From: Beijerinckiaceae bacterium | Lineage (GTDB): Bacteria; Pseudomonadota; Alphaproteobacteria; Rhizobiales; Beijerinckiaceae | Assembly: GCA_019753285.1 (NCBI GenBank) | Contig: JAIELD010000031.1 | Coordinates: 1 to 64,000, forward strand | Length of the DNA stretch: 64,000 nucleotides | Reading direction: 5' to 3' | Program-made: the position numbers and the translations under genes | Part shown: piece after piece, positions 6,161 through 18,066 of the stretch | Layout of the letters: each line of letters opens with the position of its first letter | Numbering within the stretch: the stretch's first letter is position 1 | The notes under the pieces: model-generated | The model's input: only the letters and a program-made list of their open reading frames with translations | The model's database searches: none | Told to the model about the DNA's origin: nothing

Positions 6161-8350
6161 TCAGACGACGTCGATCAGCTCCGCCGCGAACGAGGCGCGC
6201 TCCTGGATGAAGGCGAACCGCGATTCCGGCTTGTTGCCCATGAGGCGCTCGACCGAGTCTGCCGTGTCATCGCGGTCTTCATGCAGCACGCGCACCTTGA
6301 GCAGGGTGCGCTTGCCCGGGTCCATCGTCGTTTCCTTCAATTGCGCTGGCATCATCTCGCCAAGACCCTTGAAGCGGCCGATCTCGACCTTGGCGTTCGC
6401 CTTGAACGCCGTCTTCAGCAACTGCTCCTTGTCGGCGTCATCGACCGCATAGACCGTCTTGCCGCCATGGCTCAGCCGGTAGAGCGGCGGCACGGCGAGA
6501 TAGAGGTGCCCGTTGTCGATCAGCCTCGGCGTCTGACGATAGAAGAAGGTGATGAGCAGAGAGGCGATGTGCGCGCCATCGACATCGGCATCGGTCATGA
6601 TGATGACCTTCTCGTAGCGCAGATCGTCGTCGCGATAGTGTGAGCCCATGCCGCAGCCGAGCGCCTGAATGAGATCGGATAGCTGCTGGTTGGCGGCAAG
6701 TTTGTCGCGTCCCGCATTGGCGACGTTGAGGATCTTGCCGCGCAGCGGCAGCACGGCCTGCGACTGCCGGTTTCGCGCCTGCTTGGCGGAGCCGCCGGCC
6801 GAATCACCCTCGACGATGAAGAGCTCGGAGCCTTGCGCCTGCGTGTTGCTGCAGTCGGCGAGCTTGCCGGGCAGGCGAAGCTTCCGCGTCGGAGATTTGC
6901 GGGCGAGGTCCTTTTCCGCCCGGCGACGCAACCGCTCGTCTGCGCGCTCGATCGTGAAGTCGAGCAGGCGGTTCGCCATCACGGGCGAGGCGGCAAGCCA
7001 ATGGTCGAAGGCGTCCCGCACCGCCGCCTCCACGATGCGGGAGGCTTCGAGCGTCGACAGCTTGTCCTTCGTCTGCCCCACGAATTCGGGCTCGCGGATG
7101 AAAACCGAGAGCATCGCGCCGCACGAGACCATCACGTCGTCGGTCGTGAGCGCGCTGGCGCGCTTTACCTGATTGACGCGCTCCGCATGGTCCTTGAGGC
7201 CGCGCAGCAAGGCAATGCGCAGCCCGCTCTCATGTGTGCCGCCTTCGGTGGTCGGGATGGTGTTGCAGTAGGACGAGACGAAACCGTCATCATTGCCGAA
7301 CCATGCGACAGCCCATTCCAGCGAGCCGTGTCCGCCAGGCTTCGTTATTTTGCCGGCAAATATCTGCTCGGCGACCAGTTCCTTGCCTTCGATCTCGCGG
7401 GCAAGATAATCGCGCAGGCCGCCCGGAAATCGGAACGTCGCGGAAGCCGGCACCTCGGGCGTCGCTGCGAGCAGCGCATCAGCGCATTTCCATCGCACCT
7501 CCACACCGCCGAAAAGATAAGCCTTCGAGCGCGACATCTTGAACAGCCGGCGCGGATCGAAATGCGTCGCGGCCCCGAAGATCTGATGATCCGGCTTGAA
7601 GCGGACGCGCGTGCCGCGGCGGTTGAGCACCTTGCCGAGATTTTGAAGCGAGCCCTGCGGGACGCCGCGCGAAAAGCTTTGACGATAGAGCTGCTGGCCG
7701 CGCGCCACCTCCACCTCGAGCAGTTCCGAAAGCGCGTTGACGACGGAGATGCCGACGCCGTGCAGGCCGCCCGACGTTTCGTAGACCTTGGAATCGAACT
7801 TACCGCCGGCATGGAGCGTGCACAGAATGACTTCGAGCGCCGATTTGCCGGGAAATTTGGGGTGCGGATCGACGGGAATGCCGCGCCCATTGTCGGTGAC
7901 GGTGAGAAATCCGTCTTCGCCGTATTCGACCTCGATGAAGGTCGCATGTCCGGCAACCGCCTCATCCATCGAATTGTCGATCACCTCGGCGAAAAGATGG
8001 TGCAGCGCCTTTTCGTCCGTACCGCCGATATACATGCCGGGACGGCGTCGCACCGGCTCCAGCCCTTCCAGAACCTCGATGTCGGCGGCGGTATAATTGC
8101 CTTCTGACGGCGTAGCGGCAGGACGCGCCGGAGCCGGCACCACGATCGGCTCTGGCGTGGCGGGGCGTTCGGGTTTGGCGAATGCCTCAGGCTTGGTGAC
8201 GATAACCGGCTTCGGGCGTGCCGGCTCGAGGCTCGCTGGTTCCGCCTTTATCGGTGCGTTGGCCGGTTTCGCGGCTGCCGACGGGACAAGGCTGCGCGCG
8301 GCCTCCTCGAGCTTGCCGAACAAATCCGCGTCGAAATTCTGTTTGGCCAA
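6161..8350 (-). CDS. parE: DNA topoisomerase IV subunit B (ParE)
   Basis: ATPase subunit of topoisomerase IV, which decatenates daughter chromosomes together with ParC. Visible are the GHKL ATP-binding motifs (EVIDNSMDEA, DNGRGIPV, GGLHGVGISVV) and the TOPRIM metal-binding motifs (EGDSAGGSAKQ, MTDADVDGAHI). QALGCGMGSHYRDDDLRYEK is typical of ParE rather than GyrB. The tracked ORF begins at a GTG at 8461, but its first 37 residues look non-coding. I prefer the TTG at 8348-8350, giving MAKQNFDADLFGKLEE and 729 residues, with a weak purine-rich stretch upstream. A Pro/Ala-rich linker precedes the ATPase domain. parC is not in the window. Confidence 0.93.
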   Translation of the reverse strand: MAKQNFDADLFGKLEEAARSLVPSAAAKPANAPIKAEPASLEPARPKPVIVTKPEAFAKPERPATPEPIVVPAPARPAATPSEGNYTAADIEVLEGLEPVRRRPGMYIGGTDEKALHHLFAEVIDNSMDEAVAGHATFIEVEYGEDGFLTVTDNGRGIPVDPHPKFPGKSALEVILCTLHAGGKFDSKVYETSGGLHGVGISVVNALSELLEVEVARGQQLYRQSFSRGVPQGSLQNLGKVLNRRGTRVRFKPDHQIFGAATHFDPRRLFKMSRSKAYLFGGVEVRWKCADALLAATPEVPASATFRFPGGLRDYLAREIEGKELVAEQIFAGKITKPGGHGSLEWAVAWFGNDDGFVSSYCNTIPTTEGGTHESGLRIALLRGLKDHAERVNQVKRASALTTDDVMVSCGAMLSVFIREPEFVGQTKDKLSTLEASRIVEAAVRDAFDHWLAASPVMANRLLDFTIERADERLRRRAEKDLARKSPTRKLRLPGKLADCSNTQAQGSELFIVEGDSAGGSAKQARNRQSQAVLPLRGKILNVANAGRDKLAANQQLSDLIQALGCGMGSHYRDDDLRYEKVIIMTDADVDGAHIASLLITFFYRQTPRLIDNGHLYLAVPPLYRLSHGGKTVYAVDDADKEQLLKTAFKANAKVEIGRFKGLGEMMPAQLKETTMDPGKRTLLKVRVLHEDRDDTADSVERLMGNKPESRFAFIQERASFAAELIDVV

Positions 8351-8894: not shown

Positions 8895-8914
8895 AGCCGC
8901 AAAAAGGGGCGGCT
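8895..8914 (-). terminator. Weak hairpin after the ABC permease stop
   Basis: AGCCGC and GCGGCT flank an 8-base A/G-rich loop immediately beyond the permease stop codon at 8915. There is no downstream T-run on the minus strand, so this is at best a weak or Rho-assisted end for the phoA operon. Confidence 0.3.
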
Positions 8915-10129
8915 TCAGTTCAAACCGTCCATCGGTTTTTGAACCGCAATCAGGCCTGCCGGAACGAGTGCGAGCGCCAGGCCGATCAGCGCCGTTGAGA
9001 GAGCCGAGCGTATTTCGGCTTCGCCGGGCAGCGCTGTGATGGCGAGGCCTGTGGTCTTCGACAATGCCGCCGCCAGTCCGCTGGACAAGCCGGCAGCCAT
9101 CGCCAGGCCAAGCACCGTTCCCATCACGATGATGATCGCGACGTAACTCCATACACAGAGCACGACATAGCCACGCGGCGCGCCAAGCACGCGCAGGACG
9201 GCGAATTGGCGGCGGCTGAGAGAGACGATTGCGAACGCTCCGCCTGCGAGGGCCAACAAGACGAGAAGCTGCGTCGCCATAACGATCGAGGACAGCAGGG
9301 CCTGAACGTTGCCCATCAGCCCGTAGATCTGCACCAGCACTTCAGCCGGAAAGAACGACATGCGGTCCTGTCCGCGAAACTGCGCCCGCAACCGGTAGGC
9401 TGCGACCACGCTGTCCGGCTTCACCACCACCACCGGCACGCCTGAAATATATCGCGGATCGAAGGGCAGGCCGATGCGCTCGTCGCCGGGCGGGTGGCCG
9501 TTCGGCAGGCTGTGTGTCTTCCAGACCTGCTCGACCGGAACCGCGATAGCGCGGTCCCATGGCGTGCCGGTCGGTTTCATGCGGCCGACGACCGTGATTT
9601 CAAGATCGTGAATGTCACCATCCTCATCCTCTGCGGCCGCCGCATGATGTTCGAGCCCATGCTCTGGCTTGAACCGATCTCCGATCTTGAGCGGTGAGGC
9701 CGCGCCGACCACCGCCTCCGCTTCGGTCCTGAACGTCGAGCCCTCGGCGAGCCCGCCCGACAGGTAGTCGACGAAGGAGGCAAGCGTGCCAATGATCGGC
9801 GCGCCCTGATGATTGTCGCCAAAAGCGATCGGCGCCGCAAAGGCGACATGCGGCGCGGCAAGGGCATCGCCCAGCACCTTGGCGTCGAGGAGCGGGACCG
9901 TGCCTGGCCGAAGATAGATCGCGGTGAGCACGACATCCGTCTGGCTGCCGGGCGCAGCGACTAGAATGTCGAACTTGTCGGCGGCCCGTGCGCTCGCCTG
10001 GCGGAAGCCGCGCTCCTGCGCCCCCAGGATAGCGCCGAGAGCGATGGCGAAGGCGACGATTCCACTGAACAACAGGAACAGAAGCCAGTGCCTCCTCATC
10101 GTGGCGCGGATGACCGGAATGGGGTTCAT
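8915..10129 (-). CDS. FtsX/MacB-type ABC transporter permease
   Basis: Inner-membrane permease of 404 residues: one N-terminal membrane helix (about 13-35), a large extracytoplasmic domain, then three C-terminal helices (about 270-400), the FtsX/MacB topology. The SLSRRQFAVLRVLGAPRGYV segment is the usual cytoplasmic coupling region. Residues 156-175 of the outer domain form a His/acid-rich loop (EHGLEHHAAAAEDEDGDIHD) that could bind a metal. VVGRMKPTGTPWDRAIAVP follows it. It overlaps the ATPase gene by 4 bases and is last in the phoA operon. I recall similar permeases in zinc-starvation clusters of pseudomonads; the substrate here is unknown. Confidence 0.85.
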   Translation of the reverse strand: MNPIPVIRATMRRHWLLFLLFSGIVAFAIALGAILGAQERGFRQASARAADKFDILVAAPGSQTDVVLTAIYLRPGTVPLLDAKVLGDALAAPHVAFAAPIAFGDNHQGAPIIGTLASFVDYLSGGLAEGSTFRTEAEAVVGAASPLKIGDRFKPEHGLEHHAAAAEDEDGDIHDLEITVVGRMKPTGTPWDRAIAVPVEQVWKTHSLPNGHPPGDERIGLPFDPRYISGVPVVVVKPDSVVAAYRLRAQFRGQDRMSFFPAEVLVQIYGLMGNVQALLSSIVMATQLLVLLALAGGAFAIVSLSRRQFAVLRVLGAPRGYVVLCVWSYVAIIIVMGTVLGLAMAAGLSSGLAAALSKTTGLAITALPGEAEIRSALSTALIGLALALVPAGLIAVQKPMDGLN

Positions 10130-10818
10130 AAGACAGCGGCAACGTCATGCTGTTTCAGCCGTCCGTGCTCCAGCGCGAGCCTCGCGCCGCAGCGCTCGAT
10201 CAGCCGCTCGTCATGCGAGACGGTGATGACCAGCTTGCCTGACCGGGCTGCGAGCTCGGTGAGCAGCGTCGAGACGTCGTTCGCTGCCTCGGCGTCGAGG
10301 CTCGCGGTCGGTTCGTCCGCCAGGATGATCGGCGGATCGAAGAGCAGCGCCCTGGCTATGGCGACGCGCTGCTGCTCGCCGCGCGAGAGCTGGCTGCTGA
10401 GCTTGCGGGCGATTGGAACGCGAAGCTCGTCCAGCAGGTTCAGCGCACGGGCCTTCAAGTCTGCGGAGGCTGAAAACAGCGCGAACCGCGCCGGCATCAG
10501 CACATTCTCGATCGGCGAAAGCTCGGCGATCAGGTGAAAATCCTGAAAGACGAAGCCGGCGTTTTCCCTGCGCCAGCGATCGCGGGCCGTCTGCGGCAAT
10601 CGCATCAGCATTGTTTCGTCCCAGGCAACGTTGCCTTCCAGATCGTCGACGAGCCCGGCCAGTGCATAGAGAAGCGTCGATTTGCCTGATCCCGACGGCC
10701 CGGTGATCGCGAGCGAGTCTCCGCAGCCGGCTTCGAGACGAGGAATGTCGAGTGCCGTGAAGCGCGCGCCTGCTGCATCGACAAAGGTGATCCGCAGAGA
10801 GTCGGCCCGCAGTTGCAA
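10126..10818 (-). CDS. ABC transporter ATP-binding protein (LolD/MacB class)
   Basis: Cytoplasmic ATPase of 230 residues that should power the overlapping FtsX-type permease. Visible motifs are Walker A GPSGSGKST near residue 40, the Q-loop in FVFQDFHLI, signature LSRGEQQR, Walker B IILADEPTASLD and the switch histidine in VSHDERL. MacB/LolD-class ATPases act as mechanotransmission pumps or extractors rather than classical importers. It is co-directional with the Tat-exported CPFC protein (27 bases upstream), and its stop overlaps the permease start in ATGA style, implying translational coupling. Confidence 0.9.
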   Translation of the reverse strand: MQLRADSLRITFVDAAGARFTALDIPRLEAGCGDSLAITGPSGSGKSTLLYALAGLVDDLEGNVAWDETMLMRLPQTARDRWRRENAGFVFQDFHLIAELSPIENVLMPARFALFSASADLKARALNLLDELRVPIARKLSSQLSRGEQQRVAIARALLFDPPIILADEPTASLDAEAANDVSTLLTELAARSGKLVITVSHDERLIERCGARLALEHGRLKQHDVAAVL

Positions 10819-10845
10819 ATGAGCCCCCTCAAGCCGGACGGCGCG

Positions 10846-11313
10846 TCATGCCGCGCGATACTGCGCGTCCACGAGCCTCACGCGGCTGACGAATCCGGTC
10901 GCTTCGTCCGTCTCGGTCCCGATATCGAGAACGCCATCTGTGACGATGAGCGTGTTGAACGGAACGACAGCGAGGGCGTTGGCGACGCGCACCAGCATGA
11001 GATCGTCAGGCCAGGACGCGCTGCTGTCGCAGAATGGACAAAACGCCATCGGAATGCGGGTGAGGACGAAGAAGTCGATTTCGGCCTTCAGCGGCGGCGC
11101 CATGTAGCCTCTGACGGCGATCCGCTTGCCGGCGAGTTGCTTGGCCAGCTCGGAGAACTCGCCGCGCTCGGCCCAGAGATCACGGATCTTGACCTGCGTT
11201 TCGCCTGCCCAAGCGGGCGGAGACGATAGCGCCGCGCCCACCGCGCCGAGCAGCAACGCGCGCCTCGAAACGGGAATTCCGTCCCTGATAGCGACGCGGC
11301 TGATCGGCAGCAT
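10846..11313 (-). CDS. Tat-exported CPFC protein, DUF3299-like, of unknown function
   Basis: About 155 residues starting MLPISRVAIRDG at the ATG 11313. The tracked start lies inside phoA and is unlikely. A twin-arginine signal is seen (SRRALLLGAVGAALSS, cut near AWAG), so the protein should be folded before export. The mature part contains GKRIAVRGYMAPP and FFVLTRIPMAFCPFC, where the CxxC pair could bind a metal or be redox-active. The layout resembles DUF3299 proteins that accompany FtsX-type ABC cassettes. It lies 13 bases after phoA and 27 before the ATPase gene, so it is very probably in the same operon. The function is not established. Confidence 0.75.
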   Translation of the reverse strand: MLPISRVAIRDGIPVSRRALLLGAVGAALSSPPAWAGETQVKIRDLWAERGEFSELAKQLAGKRIAVRGYMAPPLKAEIDFFVLTRIPMAFCPFCDSSASWPDDLMLVRVANALAVVPFNTLIVTDGVLDIGTETDEATGFVSRVRLVDAQYRAA

Positions 11314-11326
11314 GGCGTTCAGACCT

Positions 11327-12865
11327 TTACTTCTTGCCTTCGAGGCGGGCCGATGCCTGAAGCGCATGGTTCATGACCTGATAGATATAGCTTTCCTCGA
11401 CGCTGCCCTGGAAGAGATGCGCCCAGGGGCCAGCCGCAAAGATCGCGACGTCCTCGCCGGCATGCGTCTCGCTCGTGAGCGGAACCAGAGCCTGCTGGAT
11501 GAAGTCGGGATCGGTCGTATCGACGGATTTGAGGTCGGCGCGAACACCATCCTTCAGCCCTCCTGGGCCATTGGCGTAGCCGAGCGTCGTATAGGGCTTG
11601 CCATCGAGCCCGAGCGCGAGCTTGCCCTTTTCCTTGACGAGCCCGAGGATCGGATTGTCGCGGTCCGGATAGCCATTCATGGTCAGCGCATGGCTGTGGT
11701 CGGCGGTGACGATGATCAGCGTCTCGTCGAGGTTCACCTTGGCAAGCGCCGCCTTGATCGCCTTGTCGAAGGCGACGGCGTCGGTGAGCGTGCGGTATGC
11801 GTTGTTGGCGTGCGAGCCATGGTCGATGCGCCCGCCTTCCACCATCAGAAAATAGCCGTTGGGGTTCGACGACATCGCATCGATGGCAAAAGTGGTCATG
11901 TCTGCCAGTTCAGGCTCGCCGCCCTTGTCCTTGGGCCGATCGAAGTCGAACTTCATGTTGTCCGGCTCGAACAGGCCGAGCACCTTGGTTTGGTTCTTGG
12001 GGTTGAGCGCCTTGAACTGATCGAGATTCCAGACATAAGCGCCGGAGTTCGAATAGCGCTTCAGCCAGTCGGCGGTAAGGTCCCGGCCATCTTTTCGCTT
12101 GCCCTTGCGGTCCGCATATTCGGGATCGGCCATCGTCGCGGGCAGAAAGTTGAAGCGTCCGCCGCCGAGCATCACGTCGAGGCCGTCTCCGTATTTCATC
12201 TCGACGAGCTGACGGGCGATGTCGATGCAGCCATTGCTGACAGCTTCCTCGGAAAGATCGGCATCCGACTCCCAGAGGCGGTTAGCGCTGTGGGAATAGA
12301 GGGCGGCGGGCGTCGCGTCCGTGATGCGGGCCGTCGAGACGGCACCAGCCGACATCCCGATCGATTTCGCCACCTCGGCGAGCGTCGTCACCTCCTTGCC
12401 CTTCGTTCCGCCGCAGTTGCGCCATTCAGCGGAACCGCGCACGCCCTCCATGTTGTTGCGCATCTTGACGCCGGTCAGCATCGCACCGGCGCTCGGCGCG
12501 GAGTCGGTAACCTGACTGTCATGGGCGTAGGTGCGGGACAACGCCGCATGTGGGAATTTTTCAAAGCTCAGCAGGTTGGAGACACCGTCTACGCCGCGCT
12601 GCTGGCCCTCGAAGATACGGGCGGCGGTCATCGTCGCGACGCCAAAGCCGTCGCCCACGAAGAGAATGACGTTTTTGGCGCGTTTGGTGTTGGGCTGCTG
12701 CTGTAGAATGCGGGCGAGGTTGGCCTCGCCATCCTTGAAATACGCATCATCCGTCTGGACGATCTTCGCCTCTTCGCCGAATGCCGGAGCGACCACGGCG
12801 CTGGTTGCCCAGAGCGCGAGTATCGCAAGGCCAAAACGCGACGATGTCTTGAGGCGGAATTGCAT
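11327..12865 (-). CDS. phoA: Alkaline phosphatase, PhoA family (periplasmic)
   Basis: A 512-residue zinc/magnesium phosphomonoesterase that frees phosphate from organic esters in the periplasm. It has an N-terminal signal peptide (GLAILALWATSAVVAPAFG). Motifs: FVGDGFGVATMTA with the first metal aspartate, VTDSAPSAGAM with the nucleophile serine, MVEGGRIDHGSHANNA, and VTADHSHALTMNG with metal-binding Asp/His. Length is within the PhoA range. An 18-base Pho box lies 70 bases upstream, so PhoB control is very likely. It heads a tight four-gene operon with the CPFC protein, ABC ATPase and permease. Confidence 0.95.
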   Translation of the reverse strand: MQFRLKTSSRFGLAILALWATSAVVAPAFGEEAKIVQTDDAYFKDGEANLARILQQQPNTKRAKNVILFVGDGFGVATMTAARIFEGQQRGVDGVSNLLSFEKFPHAALSRTYAHDSQVTDSAPSAGAMLTGVKMRNNMEGVRGSAEWRNCGGTKGKEVTTLAEVAKSIGMSAGAVSTARITDATPAALYSHSANRLWESDADLSEEAVSNGCIDIARQLVEMKYGDGLDVMLGGGRFNFLPATMADPEYADRKGKRKDGRDLTADWLKRYSNSGAYVWNLDQFKALNPKNQTKVLGLFEPDNMKFDFDRPKDKGGEPELADMTTFAIDAMSSNPNGYFLMVEGGRIDHGSHANNAYRTLTDAVAFDKAIKAALAKVNLDETLIIVTADHSHALTMNGYPDRDNPILGLVKEKGKLALGLDGKPYTTLGYANGPGGLKDGVRADLKSVDTTDPDFIQQALVPLTSETHAGEDVAIFAAGPWAHLFQGSVEESYIYQVMNHALQASARLEGKK

Positions 12866-13199
12866 GAGGTTCTCCGAGTGTGCTGCGCCGGCCGACGGGC
12901 CACGCCTTTCGCCTCAGGCCATATGGACCAGGAACTACAGTTTCATGACAGGGGCGCCCCGACTATGCAGGCTTAAGCAGACCCGGACAAGATGTTCGCC
13001 TGGCTGCTGGTCCGGACGTCAGATCGATCTCCGTTTCCCTGTCTTGCGCGGGGCGGCTCTTACGCGACGCCGTTAACCAGTTTCGTATTCGATTTCTTCA
13101 ACGAAAGCTGCGCCTCATCCGGGACAGGTCGAGGTCACAGGCCGCGGGCAGGGCCCGATATCGCGGTTCATGGCTCGCAGAGGCTTTCGAAGGCGGATA
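12866..13199. other. Divergent regulatory region between phoA and a membrane-protein gene
   Basis: About 330 bases separate the phoA start from the membrane-protein start. The phoA-proximal part carries the Pho box described separately. The other half shows no recognisable promoter, RNA or ORF that I can support; the tracked ORFs across it (12531-13076, 12992-13591) overlap real genes in other frames. Confidence 0.5.
12934..12951 (-). promoter_or_regulatory. Pho box (PhoB-binding site) for the phoA operon
   Basis: On the minus strand the sequence is CTGTCATGAAACTGTAGT. It matches the PhoB direct-repeat consensus CTGTCAT-N4-CTGTCAT, with a perfect first repeat and five of seven bases in the second. 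It is 68-86 bases before the phoA start codon, an activating distance, and the downstream gene is alkaline phosphatase, the classic target. Confidence 0.85.
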
Positions 13200-16519: not shown

Positions 16520-17938
16520 TTACGCCATCACATCGAACCACGTCGCGACGCCACCTTCGAAATGTTCGAGGATCGATGACCGGATCGCCCATCGTCCCGG
16601 ATTGTCGGCGACGAAGGAAATTCTGGAGGTCTGCCCTTCGGCCAGATAGAGCGTGTCGAGAAAATAGGGCTCCCAACCGTCGTCGAACGGGTGCAGCAGG
16701 CGGAAATTATGGCCGTGGACGTGGATGACCTGCGCCCATGCCGACTTGTTGACCAGCGCGAGCACCACCGGCGAGCCGCGCTTCACGGTAAAAAGCGGCT
16801 TGCCTGCAAAGCCGCCCGCTGCACCATTGTTGAGCTGCCAGAGAGTCGTACCGCTGCGTTGCGCGGCCTCGCCTGTCTTTGCATCCGCGCCGCGTTGAAA
16901 GCCGCCGGTGATGACAAGATCGGCCCGCGTCGCCGACTGCAGCTTGATGGCGGGTGGAAGACCGTTGCCCTGCAACGCGACGATCGGCGGGCGAGGCTCG
17001 ACTTTCGTGCCCTCGCCTTTCAACACCAGCAACGGCAGCACCTGTCCGAGCGCGATGCCGATTCGCCCTTCGGAGCCTTCCTCGGACGGAAGATCGACCA
17101 TGATGTCGAAACGCGAGCCGGGGGCCATGATCACGGTGCGGCGCAGCGGATCGAACGGATCGCAGGGTTGCCCGTCGATCGCCATCACGCGCGCTTGCAC
17201 GTTTTCGAATTTGAGCGGGCAGGCCCGGGCATTGGCGACATTGAGAAAGCGAAGGCGAAGCCGGCTTCCCGGAGCGGAGGCGAGCGGCTGCGGCGCGGCA
17301 AGGCCGTTCACAGTGAGGAAATTACCGAGCCGCCCGGCGCGGCCGCGGTCATCGATGTTTGCGAAGTCGGCGCTCATCGCGCCGCTCGGTTCGAAGCGCC
17401 AGTCGTCAATGATGACGGCAAGGTCGTGATCGACCGCCGGCGGCTGCTGCTCCTCGACCAGAAGCATGCCGGCAAGACCGCGATCGACCTGTTCCGCGCA
17501 TGAGCCCTGCACGAGAGGGTGATACCAGAATATGCCCGAATCCGGCGGGGTGAACTGGTAGTCGAAGGTCTCGGCCGGCTTCACGGCTGCTTGCGTCAGC
17601 CCGGCGACGCCGTCCATCGCCGATGGACCGCGGACGCCGTACCAGTGGATCGAGGTCGGCTGCGCCAAGGCGTTTTCGAGCCTGACATTGAGCGCGCCGC
17701 CCTTCCGAATGCGCAGCAACGGGCCCGGCAGGGTGTTATTGTAGGCGAGCAGGCTCGCTTCGGCCGTAAAGTCCGGCTTCATGCGCCGTTGCAGCGCGGC
17801 GGGGCGCAGCGTCAACCGCTCTGGCTCACGCCTTGGCGCTTCGACCGACCGGGCGGGCAGGGCGAGGATCGTCGCGGCTAGGCTCCCGAGCGAGCCTGCG
17901 AGCAGCGCTCGGCGGGATGGGCGTGACGGCTGATCCAT
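16520..17938 (-). CDS. Tat-exported multicopper-oxidase-fold protein with degenerate copper sites
   Basis: About 472 residues, starting at the ATG 17938 (MDQPSRPSRRALLAGS) with a good AAGGA site upstream; the tracked start adds 25 unlikely residues. A twin-arginine signal is clear. Three cupredoxin-type domains are recognisable, but ligand motifs are altered: HWYG at 98-101 instead of HWHG, WYHPL at 139-142 instead of WYHxH, QVIHVHG instead of HPxHLHG, and IRSSILEH near 452-459 instead of HCHxxxH, so the type-1 cysteine is gone. This resembles FtsP/SufI, a copper-free relative, more than an active laccase. It is followed downstream by glnB. Confidence 0.8.
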   Translation of the reverse strand: MDQPSRPSRRALLAGSLGSLAATILALPARSVEAPRREPERLTLRPAALQRRMKPDFTAEASLLAYNNTLPGPLLRIRKGGALNVRLENALAQPTSIHWYGVRGPSAMDGVAGLTQAAVKPAETFDYQFTPPDSGIFWYHPLVQGSCAEQVDRGLAGMLLVEEQQPPAVDHDLAVIIDDWRFEPSGAMSADFANIDDRGRAGRLGNFLTVNGLAAPQPLASAPGSRLRLRFLNVANARACPLKFENVQARVMAIDGQPCDPFDPLRRTVIMAPGSRFDIMVDLPSEEGSEGRIGIALGQVLPLLVLKGEGTKVEPRPPIVALQGNGLPPAIKLQSATRADLVITGGFQRGADAKTGEAAQRSGTTLWQLNNGAAGGFAGKPLFTVKRGSPVVLALVNKSAWAQVIHVHGHNFRLLHPFDDGWEPYFLDTLYLAEGQTSRISFVADNPGRWAIRSSILEHFEGGVATWFDVMA

Positions 17939-18066
17939 CTGGTCCTTGTTTTGAAAGCGGCTCTGCCGCTGCGCTTTGCCTAGCGGTGTGCCAAATGACG
18001 CGCCGCTCCACAAGCCTGTGACGGGCCGCTACAATCCGGAAAACGCGGCATTGGAGCTGCATTTTT

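What the first reader, a model, noticed from the sequence alone, without database searches (positions are those of the whole stretch)
8915..12865. Phosphate-controlled operon joining a zinc phosphatase to an ABC/Tat cassette of unknown job
phoA, a Tat-exported CPFC protein, an ABC ATPase and an FtsX-type permease with a His/acid-rich outer loop (residues 156-175) are packed with gaps of 13, 27 and -4 bases. Related ATPase/permease/DUF3299 cassettes in pseudomonads are, as I recall, zinc-starvation genes. Linking the cassette to PhoA, a zinc enzyme, suggests delivery or protection of zinc, or maturation of PhoA, under phosphate stress. This coupling looks under-described.
Basis: partly seen in the sequence, partly recalled or inferred. 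Interest (0 to 1): 0.7.

Follow-up and report, generated by a model that had tools for sequence, protein, structure and literature searches.

The report
Alkaline phosphatase with zinc-transporter-like partner genes
A zinc-dependent phosphate-scavenging enzyme is encoded, in bacteria from marine alphaproteobacteria to Deinococcus, in one block with a three-gene membrane machine related to known zinc-starvation genes, which suggests that this textbook enzyme has dedicated help, most likely in getting its zinc.

Summary
phoA, a Tat-exported CPFC protein, a LolD/MacB-type ATPase and an FtsX-type permease lie in one minus-strand operon with the stated gaps, behind a Pho-box-like site. The linkage is conserved far more widely than the finding supposed. 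In a sample of its order all 34 genomes with CPFC have it directly beside phoA. 74 of the 80 best named relatives, in two proteobacterial classes, have it too, and so do Deinococcus radiodurans, Thermus and Allomeiothermus plasmids. Two distant PhoA subfamilies take part.

The zinc interpretation is partly supported. CPFC is a distant DUF3299 protein: its best structural match is PA4066. The permease shares three conserved histidines with DUF3299-linked permeases and has a His/acid loop. Relatives sit beside zur-, zigA-, DUF1826- and aztC/znuA-like genes. PhoA's zinc ligands are intact.

Against a zinc-only reading, two lineages pair the cassette with a PQQ dehydrogenase instead of phoA, and many phoA genes lack the cassette. 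No metal transfer was tested.

Best reading: a DUF3299/MacB-type zinc-handling cassette recruited to supply or insert zinc into PhoA under phosphate stress (about 0.5). I found no description of this coupling in the open-access library. It is a new variant of a known kind.

The parts
11327..12865 (-). phoA: alkaline phosphatase (PF00245), signal peptide without a twin-Arg motif, Zn/Mg ligands and Ser nucleophile region conserved
   Evidence: alignment with E. coli PhoA
10846..11313 (-). CPFC protein: Tat signal (SRRALLL), OB-like fold, distant DUF3299 relative
11029..11040 (-). CPFC motif (C92-P-F-C95); both Cys invariant in 47 aligned sequences (CPFC or CPHC)
10126..10818 (-). ABC ATPase of LolD/MacB type; Walker A, signature and Walker B motifs intact by eye
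8915..10129 (-). FtsX/MacB-fold permease with a large periplasmic domain
   Evidence: pLDDT 93.9; MacB 5gko E 4.7e-15; LolCDE
9605..9664 (-). His/acid-rich periplasmic loop of the permease (residues 156-175), bounded by conserved H157 and H174
9512..9514 (-). invariant H206 of the permease; a second His-rich loop follows it in many relatives that carry the other PhoA subtype
12934..12951 (-). Pho-box-like direct repeat CTGTCAT-GAAA-CTGTAGT upstream of phoA
8910..8927 (-). terminator-like hairpin at the end of the permease gene (weak)

Best explanation
The cassette is a divergent branch of the zinc-starvation ABC systems typified by Vibrio ZrgB/C/E and Pseudomonas PA4064-66, recruited into a phosphate-controlled phoA operon. 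The proposed mechanism is as follows. Under phosphate starvation PhoB turns on PhoA together with the CPFC/ATPase/permease complex. The periplasmic domain of the permease gathers scarce zinc on its three conserved His and its His/acid loop. ATP-driven mechanotransmission, as in MacB/LolCDE-type transporters, passes the zinc to the exported OB-fold CPFC protein or directly to apo-PhoA. PhoA is then metallated faster, or at lower free zinc, than it could manage alone. Shown here: the operon, its conservation, the family relations, the conserved His and CxxC motif, intact PhoA metal ligands, the Pho-box-like site, and zinc-gene neighbours of relatives. Inferred: that the metal is zinc, that the client is PhoA, the direction of transfer, and the role of ATP.
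For: Linkage: 34 of 199 genomes of the order encode CPFC and all 34 have PF00245 PhoA beside it on the same contig. 74 of 80 named best relatives have phoA directly upstream on the same strand, in about 42 genera, about 20 families and 5 orders of two classes. The same order of four genes is on plasmids of D. radiodurans R1, T. thermophilus and A. silvanus. Two PhoA subfamilies of about 30% mutual identity are both linked. Family: the CPFC model's best PDB match is 4hsp (PA4066, DUF3299), E 1.4e-4; hhalign against 27 DUF3299 proteins gives probability 83%, E 9e-6; L157 and L156 proteins match both profiles. Permease: H157, H174 and H206 are kept in nearly all phoA-linked, PQQ-linked, DUF3299-linked and Deinococcota permeases aligned over that region. 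Zinc context: Zur-like genes near L115 and L120 relatives, a ZigA-like GTPase near L159, CobW plus DUF1826 near L157, an AztC/ZnuA-type gene beside L112. Literature: the Vibrio zrg operon is Zur-repressed and zinc-starvation-induced (PMC9817125); a PA4065 mutation lowers growth of a znuA zrmB strain at low zinc (PMC11481552).
Against: Five loci in two separate lineages pair the cassette with a PQQ-dependent dehydrogenase instead of phoA, and PQQ enzymes are not known as zinc enzymes. 22 of 56 PhoA-bearing genomes of the order lack CPFC, and none of 20 fetched phoA loci without CPFC has the cassette nearby. Two loci have phoA-CPFC without the ATPase and permease (L164, L166). The direction of transport is unknown; PA4064/65 was argued to export pyochelin-cobalt (PMC11481552). 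No Zur-box enrichment upstream of phoA. The own genome also has a ZnuA, so zinc supply does not depend on this cassette alone. The structural match to 4hsp is modest (TM about 0.5) and other OB folds score close behind.
Confidence: 0.5

Rival explanations
1. Metal-independent envelope handling: the MacB/LolCDE-like complex folds, releases or moves exported enzymes (PhoA, PQQ dehydrogenase) rather than metals.
For: The closest solved folds are MacB and LolCDE; clients differ in metal (PhoA, PQQ dehydrogenase); CPFC can stay with phoA when the transporter is absent.
Against: Does not explain three conserved His and His/acid loops with 47% H/D/E whose length and position shift between lineages, or the zinc genes beside relatives. 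No Cys follows the signal peptide of the window's PhoA or CPFC as a lipoprotein would need (sequence).
Confidence: 0.17
2. An ordinary zinc importer into the cytoplasm, put under phosphate control because phosphate stress raises total zinc demand; PhoA is only a co-regulated neighbour.
For: DUF3299 relatives are annotated and studied as zinc uptake systems (PMC9817125); phosphate limitation raised zinc quotas in Trichodesmium (PMC9069106).
Against: Permeases of this fold have no obvious substrate channel for import; the cassette has no substrate-binding protein; the own genome already has ZnuA; strict retention beside phoA rather than other Pho genes.
Confidence: 0.15
3. An exporter of a chelator or chelator-metal complex, as proposed for PA4064/65.
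For: PMC11481552 reports cobalt and pyochelin accumulation in PA4065 mutants; phosphate-limited Pseudovibrio secretes metal chelators (PMC5348524).
Against: No chelator synthesis gene recurs in the neighbourhoods inspected; no MacA-type adaptor or TolC in the operon.
Confidence: 0.1
4. CPFC is a thiol oxidoreductase (CPHC/CPFC as in DsbA-like active sites) that forms PhoA disulfides.
For: Both Cys of CxxC are invariant in 47 aligned sequences; the window's PhoA has two Cys and most relatives of its type have four.
Against: 18 of 21 linked PhoA proteins of the second subtype have no Cys after the signal region yet keep the cassette; the fold is OB, not thioredoxin; a redox role does not explain the His-rich permease.
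Confidence: 0.04

Closest known systems
Vibrio ZrgABCDE (zinc-starvation operon; ZrgE = DUF3299)
   Same: ATPase, FtsX-type permease and a DUF3299-type exported protein in one operon; DUF3299-linked permeases align over nearly the full length of the cassette permease and keep its three His
   Different: No ZrgA/DUF2796 or ZrgD/DUF2607 here; Pho-box-like site instead of a Zur box; phoA in the operon; CPFC motif in place of the GACIHVPPPP motif
Pseudomonas aeruginosa PA4063-PA4066
   Same: MacB-like split transporter; PA4066 (4hsp) is the best structural match of CPFC
   Different: No PA4063-like His-rich protein here; PA4063-66 is Zur-regulated and has been argued to export pyochelin-cobalt
NosDFY(L) of nitrous oxide reductase
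   Same: By analogy: an ABC system encoded with, and needed for cofactor maturation of, one periplasmic metalloenzyme (PMC7660919)
   Different: No homology claimed or tested; copper and sulfur chemistry, different proteins
LolCDE / MacAB
   Same: Fold of the permease and type of the ATPase
   Different: No lipoprotein client, no MacA/TolC, extra conserved His and His/acid loops

Membership tests
DUF3299 (PF11736) | Score above Pfam gathering cut-off | tested here: not met
   No hit for the window protein or for any of the 21 aligned sequences; no match in the own genome
DUF3299 (PF11736) | Fold and profile similarity to the family | tested here: met
   4hsp top fold match E 1.4e-4; hhalign probability 83%; L157 protein above the DUF3299 cut-off also matches the CPFC profile
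Zrg / PA4063-66 zinc-starvation system | ATPase plus FtsX permease plus DUF3299-type protein in one operon | tested here: met
Zrg / PA4063-66 zinc-starvation system | His-rich periplasmic binding protein (ZrgA/PA4063) | tested here: not met
   No such gene between or beside the four genes in the window or in the annotated relatives
Zrg / PA4063-66 zinc-starvation system | Zur control | tested here: not met
   No Zur-box enrichment upstream of phoA in 73 regions with one consensus; a Pho-box-like site instead
Zrg / PA4063-66 zinc-starvation system | Role in zinc supply | not testable with these tools
   needs mutants and metal measurements
MacB/LolCDE-type (type VII) ABC transporters | Transmembrane helices around a periplasmic domain of MacB/LolE fold | tested here: met
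PhoA alkaline phosphatases (PF00245) | Family score and conserved metal ligands | tested here: met
   440.6 bits; Asp, Ser, Thr, Glu, Asp, His, Asp-His and His ligand positions conserved with E. coli PhoA
Pho regulon | Pho box upstream | tested here: met
   12/14 match in the window, enriched over shuffles in relatives; expression not tested

The most novel reading that the evidence does not exclude
The phoA cassette is a dedicated, ATP-driven metal-insertion machine for one periplasmic zinc enzyme, transferred between phyla as an enzyme-plus-maturase module, and the whole DUF3299/MacB family, including Zrg and PA4063-66, serves periplasmic metalloenzymes rather than metal import or siderophore export.
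Probability: 0.25. Interest if true: 0.87.

Novelty: new variant of a known kind. Interest (0 to 1): 0.68.

Why it matters
PhoA is the textbook zinc enzyme, and as far as I know it is held to take up zinc unaided in the periplasm. A module that keeps phoA together with a zinc-linked ABC system from alphaproteobacteria to Deinococcus suggests that zinc loading can be limiting enough to need a machine. It also makes zinc-phosphorus co-limitation, a live topic for marine microbes, testable with single gene deletions, and gives the unexplained DUF3299 family a concrete candidate client.

Tried and rejected
Single-sequence searches for CPFC in PDB, Pfam, NCBIfam and the named-genome scan found nothing, and the profile against PDB sequences gave only chance hits; only fold comparison and profile-profile alignment showed the DUF3299 link. 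I considered that the linkage might be an artefact of picking the closest relatives; the order-wide sample, searched separately for CPFC and for PF00245, gave 34 of 34. I considered a disulfide role for CPFC and rejected it as the general role because many linked PhoA proteins lack Cys. Zur-box search upstream of phoA was negative. The second CPFC gene of the own genome turned out to be an orphan without phoA, ATPase or permease (L031). Coordinates of the predicted models were not available, so I could not check whether H157, H174 and H206 meet in space. Literature searches for a described phoA-DUF3299 or phoA-ABC coupling found none; the library holds open-licence papers only.
Full report
What is there. 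The four genes lie on the minus strand exactly as described: phoA 11327-12865, the CPFC protein 10846-11313, the ATPase 10126-10818 and the permease 8915-10129, with gaps of 13, 27 and -4 bases. PhoA scores 440.6 bits to PF00245 and its closest solved relatives are animal alkaline phosphatases. Aligned with E. coli PhoA, the metal-ligand positions and the nucleophile region are kept, both in the window protein and in the second, roughly 590-residue subtype described below. The CPFC protein hits no Pfam or NCBIfam model. The ATPase is closest to LolD and YbbA models. A Pho-box-like repeat, CTGTCATGAAACTGTAGT, stands at 12934-12951 (-). Among 73 phoA-upstream regions 36% reach 11 of 14 matching positions against 2.3% of shuffled sequences, so phosphate control is likely for the group, though not shown for this genome.

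Conservation of the linkage. A search of 199 genomes of the order found CPFC in 34. A separate search for PF00245 found PhoA in 56, and all 34 CPFC genomes have phoA next to it on the same contig. In the 30 loci fetched first, phoA, CPFC, ATPase and permease are all found, and full neighbourhoods of 19 of the genomes show the same order and strand. In the named-genome collection a profile scan found 569 relatives before its limit; of the best 80, 74 have phoA directly upstream on the same strand, from Hyphomicrobiales, Rhodobacterales, Rhodospirillales, Oceanospirillales and Chromatiales. Plasmids of Deinococcus radiodurans R1, D. wulumuqiensis, Thermus thermophilus, Allomeiothermus silvanus, Paracoccus pantotrophus, Azospirillum and Qingshengfaniella carry the same four genes in the same order, the CPFC gene being annotated 'hypothetical protein'. 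Two PhoA subfamilies are linked: in my labelled set 82 loci have the window's type and 21 the other. A tree of 121 permeases puts all CPFC-linked ones on one side and the DUF3299/Zur-context ones on the other, and needs at least one switch between the PhoA types. The linkage is thus old, mobile and retained while the permeases diverged to mostly 35-50% identity with the window's.

Exceptions. 22 of the 56 PhoA-bearing genomes lack CPFC, and none of 20 fetched phoA loci without CPFC (18 from such genomes, 2 second copies) has the cassette nearby, so PhoA does not need it everywhere. Five loci pair the cassette with a PQQ-dependent dehydrogenase of the methanol/ethanol type and no phoA (L108, L110, L210, L214, L234); on the tree these fall in two separate places, one of them next to the window's own permease. 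One locus pairs it with a secreted protein of unknown family (L109), a relative of which also stands beside an orphan CPFC gene in the window's own genome (L031). Two loci keep phoA-CPFC without the transporter, one of them beside phoR- and pstS-like genes (L164, L166).

What the parts are. The AlphaFold model of CPFC (pLDDT 86.7) has PA4066, a DUF3299 protein of P. aeruginosa, as its best match in the PDB (4hsp, E 1.4e-4, TM about 0.5), with other OB-fold proteins close behind. A profile-profile comparison with 27 DUF3299 proteins gives probability 83% and E 9e-6. Intermediate proteins match both profiles (L156, L157). The permease model (pLDDT 93.9) matches MacB (E 4.7e-15) and LolCDE. H157 and H206 are invariant and H174 is 95% conserved in 38 sequences; the loop between the first two of these positions along the chain, H157 and H174, is 47% His, Asp or Glu and 21% His, against 11.5% and 2.8% overall. 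In many loci with the second PhoA type the first loop is short and a His-rich insertion follows H206 instead. Permeases linked to DUF3299 genes or to the Zur-context relatives match the profile at E-values down to 1e-66 and show the same three His where they are covered; Deinococcota permeases also keep them, with one ambiguous position in D. wulumuqiensis. MacB and LolC/E are not known for such residues (my knowledge).

Zinc context. A sister CPHC protein is divergent from an AztC/ZnuA-type zinc-binding protein gene (L112), another is close to a gene whose best NCBIfam model is Zur, below that model's cut-off (L115), and the more distant cassettes neighbour a Zur-like gene (L120), a ZigA-like GTPase just under its cut-off (L159), or CobW and DUF1826 genes (L157, L160). 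In Vibrio the DUF3299 operon zrg is repressed by Zur and rises about 75- to 206-fold at low zinc (PMC9817125). In Pseudomonas PA4063-66 is Zur-regulated, but its authors argue for export of a pyochelin-cobalt complex (PMC11481552).

How it most likely works. The simplest account of phosphate control, a zinc enzyme, a zinc-family ABC complex with conserved His facing the periplasm, and an exported partner protein is that the cassette loads or supplies zinc to PhoA when phosphate is short. MacB-type transporters transmit motion across the membrane (described for MacB in PMC11481552), which suits an insertase acting in the periplasm. NosDFY, encoded with nitrous oxide reductase and needed for its copper-sulfur centre, is a precedent in kind (PMC7660919), not a relative. 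The PQQ-linked loci mean that either the cassette handles more than one metal, or its job is a broader one for exported enzymes. I put zinc supply to or maturation of PhoA at about one half.

Novelty. In the held library only four papers name DUF3299 and none of the searches showed a coupling with phoA. Subscription papers were not searchable. I class it as a new variant of a known kind: a known zinc-linked cassette in a new, conserved partnership.

Noticed in passing
L031:5803-6249 and 6260-7579 (own genome, contig C51): An orphan CPFC gene beside a secreted protein of about 440 residues with no Pfam match; a relative of that protein (L109, no Pfam or significant PDB match) stands beside CPFC with ATPase and permease. 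A second possible client family.
   Followed up: partly
L210, L214, L234, L108, L110: The cassette beside a PQQ-dependent dehydrogenase, with cytochrome c-like, pentapeptide-repeat and unknown exported proteins nearby in several of them.
   Followed up: partly
L245:4288-8781 (Deinococcus radiodurans R1 plasmid MP1, DR_RS15680-15700): The complete phoA-CPFC-ATPase-permease operon in a genetically tractable model organism, CPFC annotated as hypothetical.
   Followed up: yes
L164 and L166: phoA-CPFC kept without the ATPase and permease; in L166 next to phoR- and pstS-like genes.
   Followed up: partly
L112-L115: CPHC sister family of CPFC, without a cassette transporter nearby, beside zinc genes in two of four loci (AztC/ZnuA type in L112, Zur-like in L115).
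   Followed up: partly
window 16520-18013 (-): Multicopper oxidase (three Cu-oxidase domains) with a twin-arginine-like N-terminus, upstream of the glnB/glnA-like genes.
   Followed up: no
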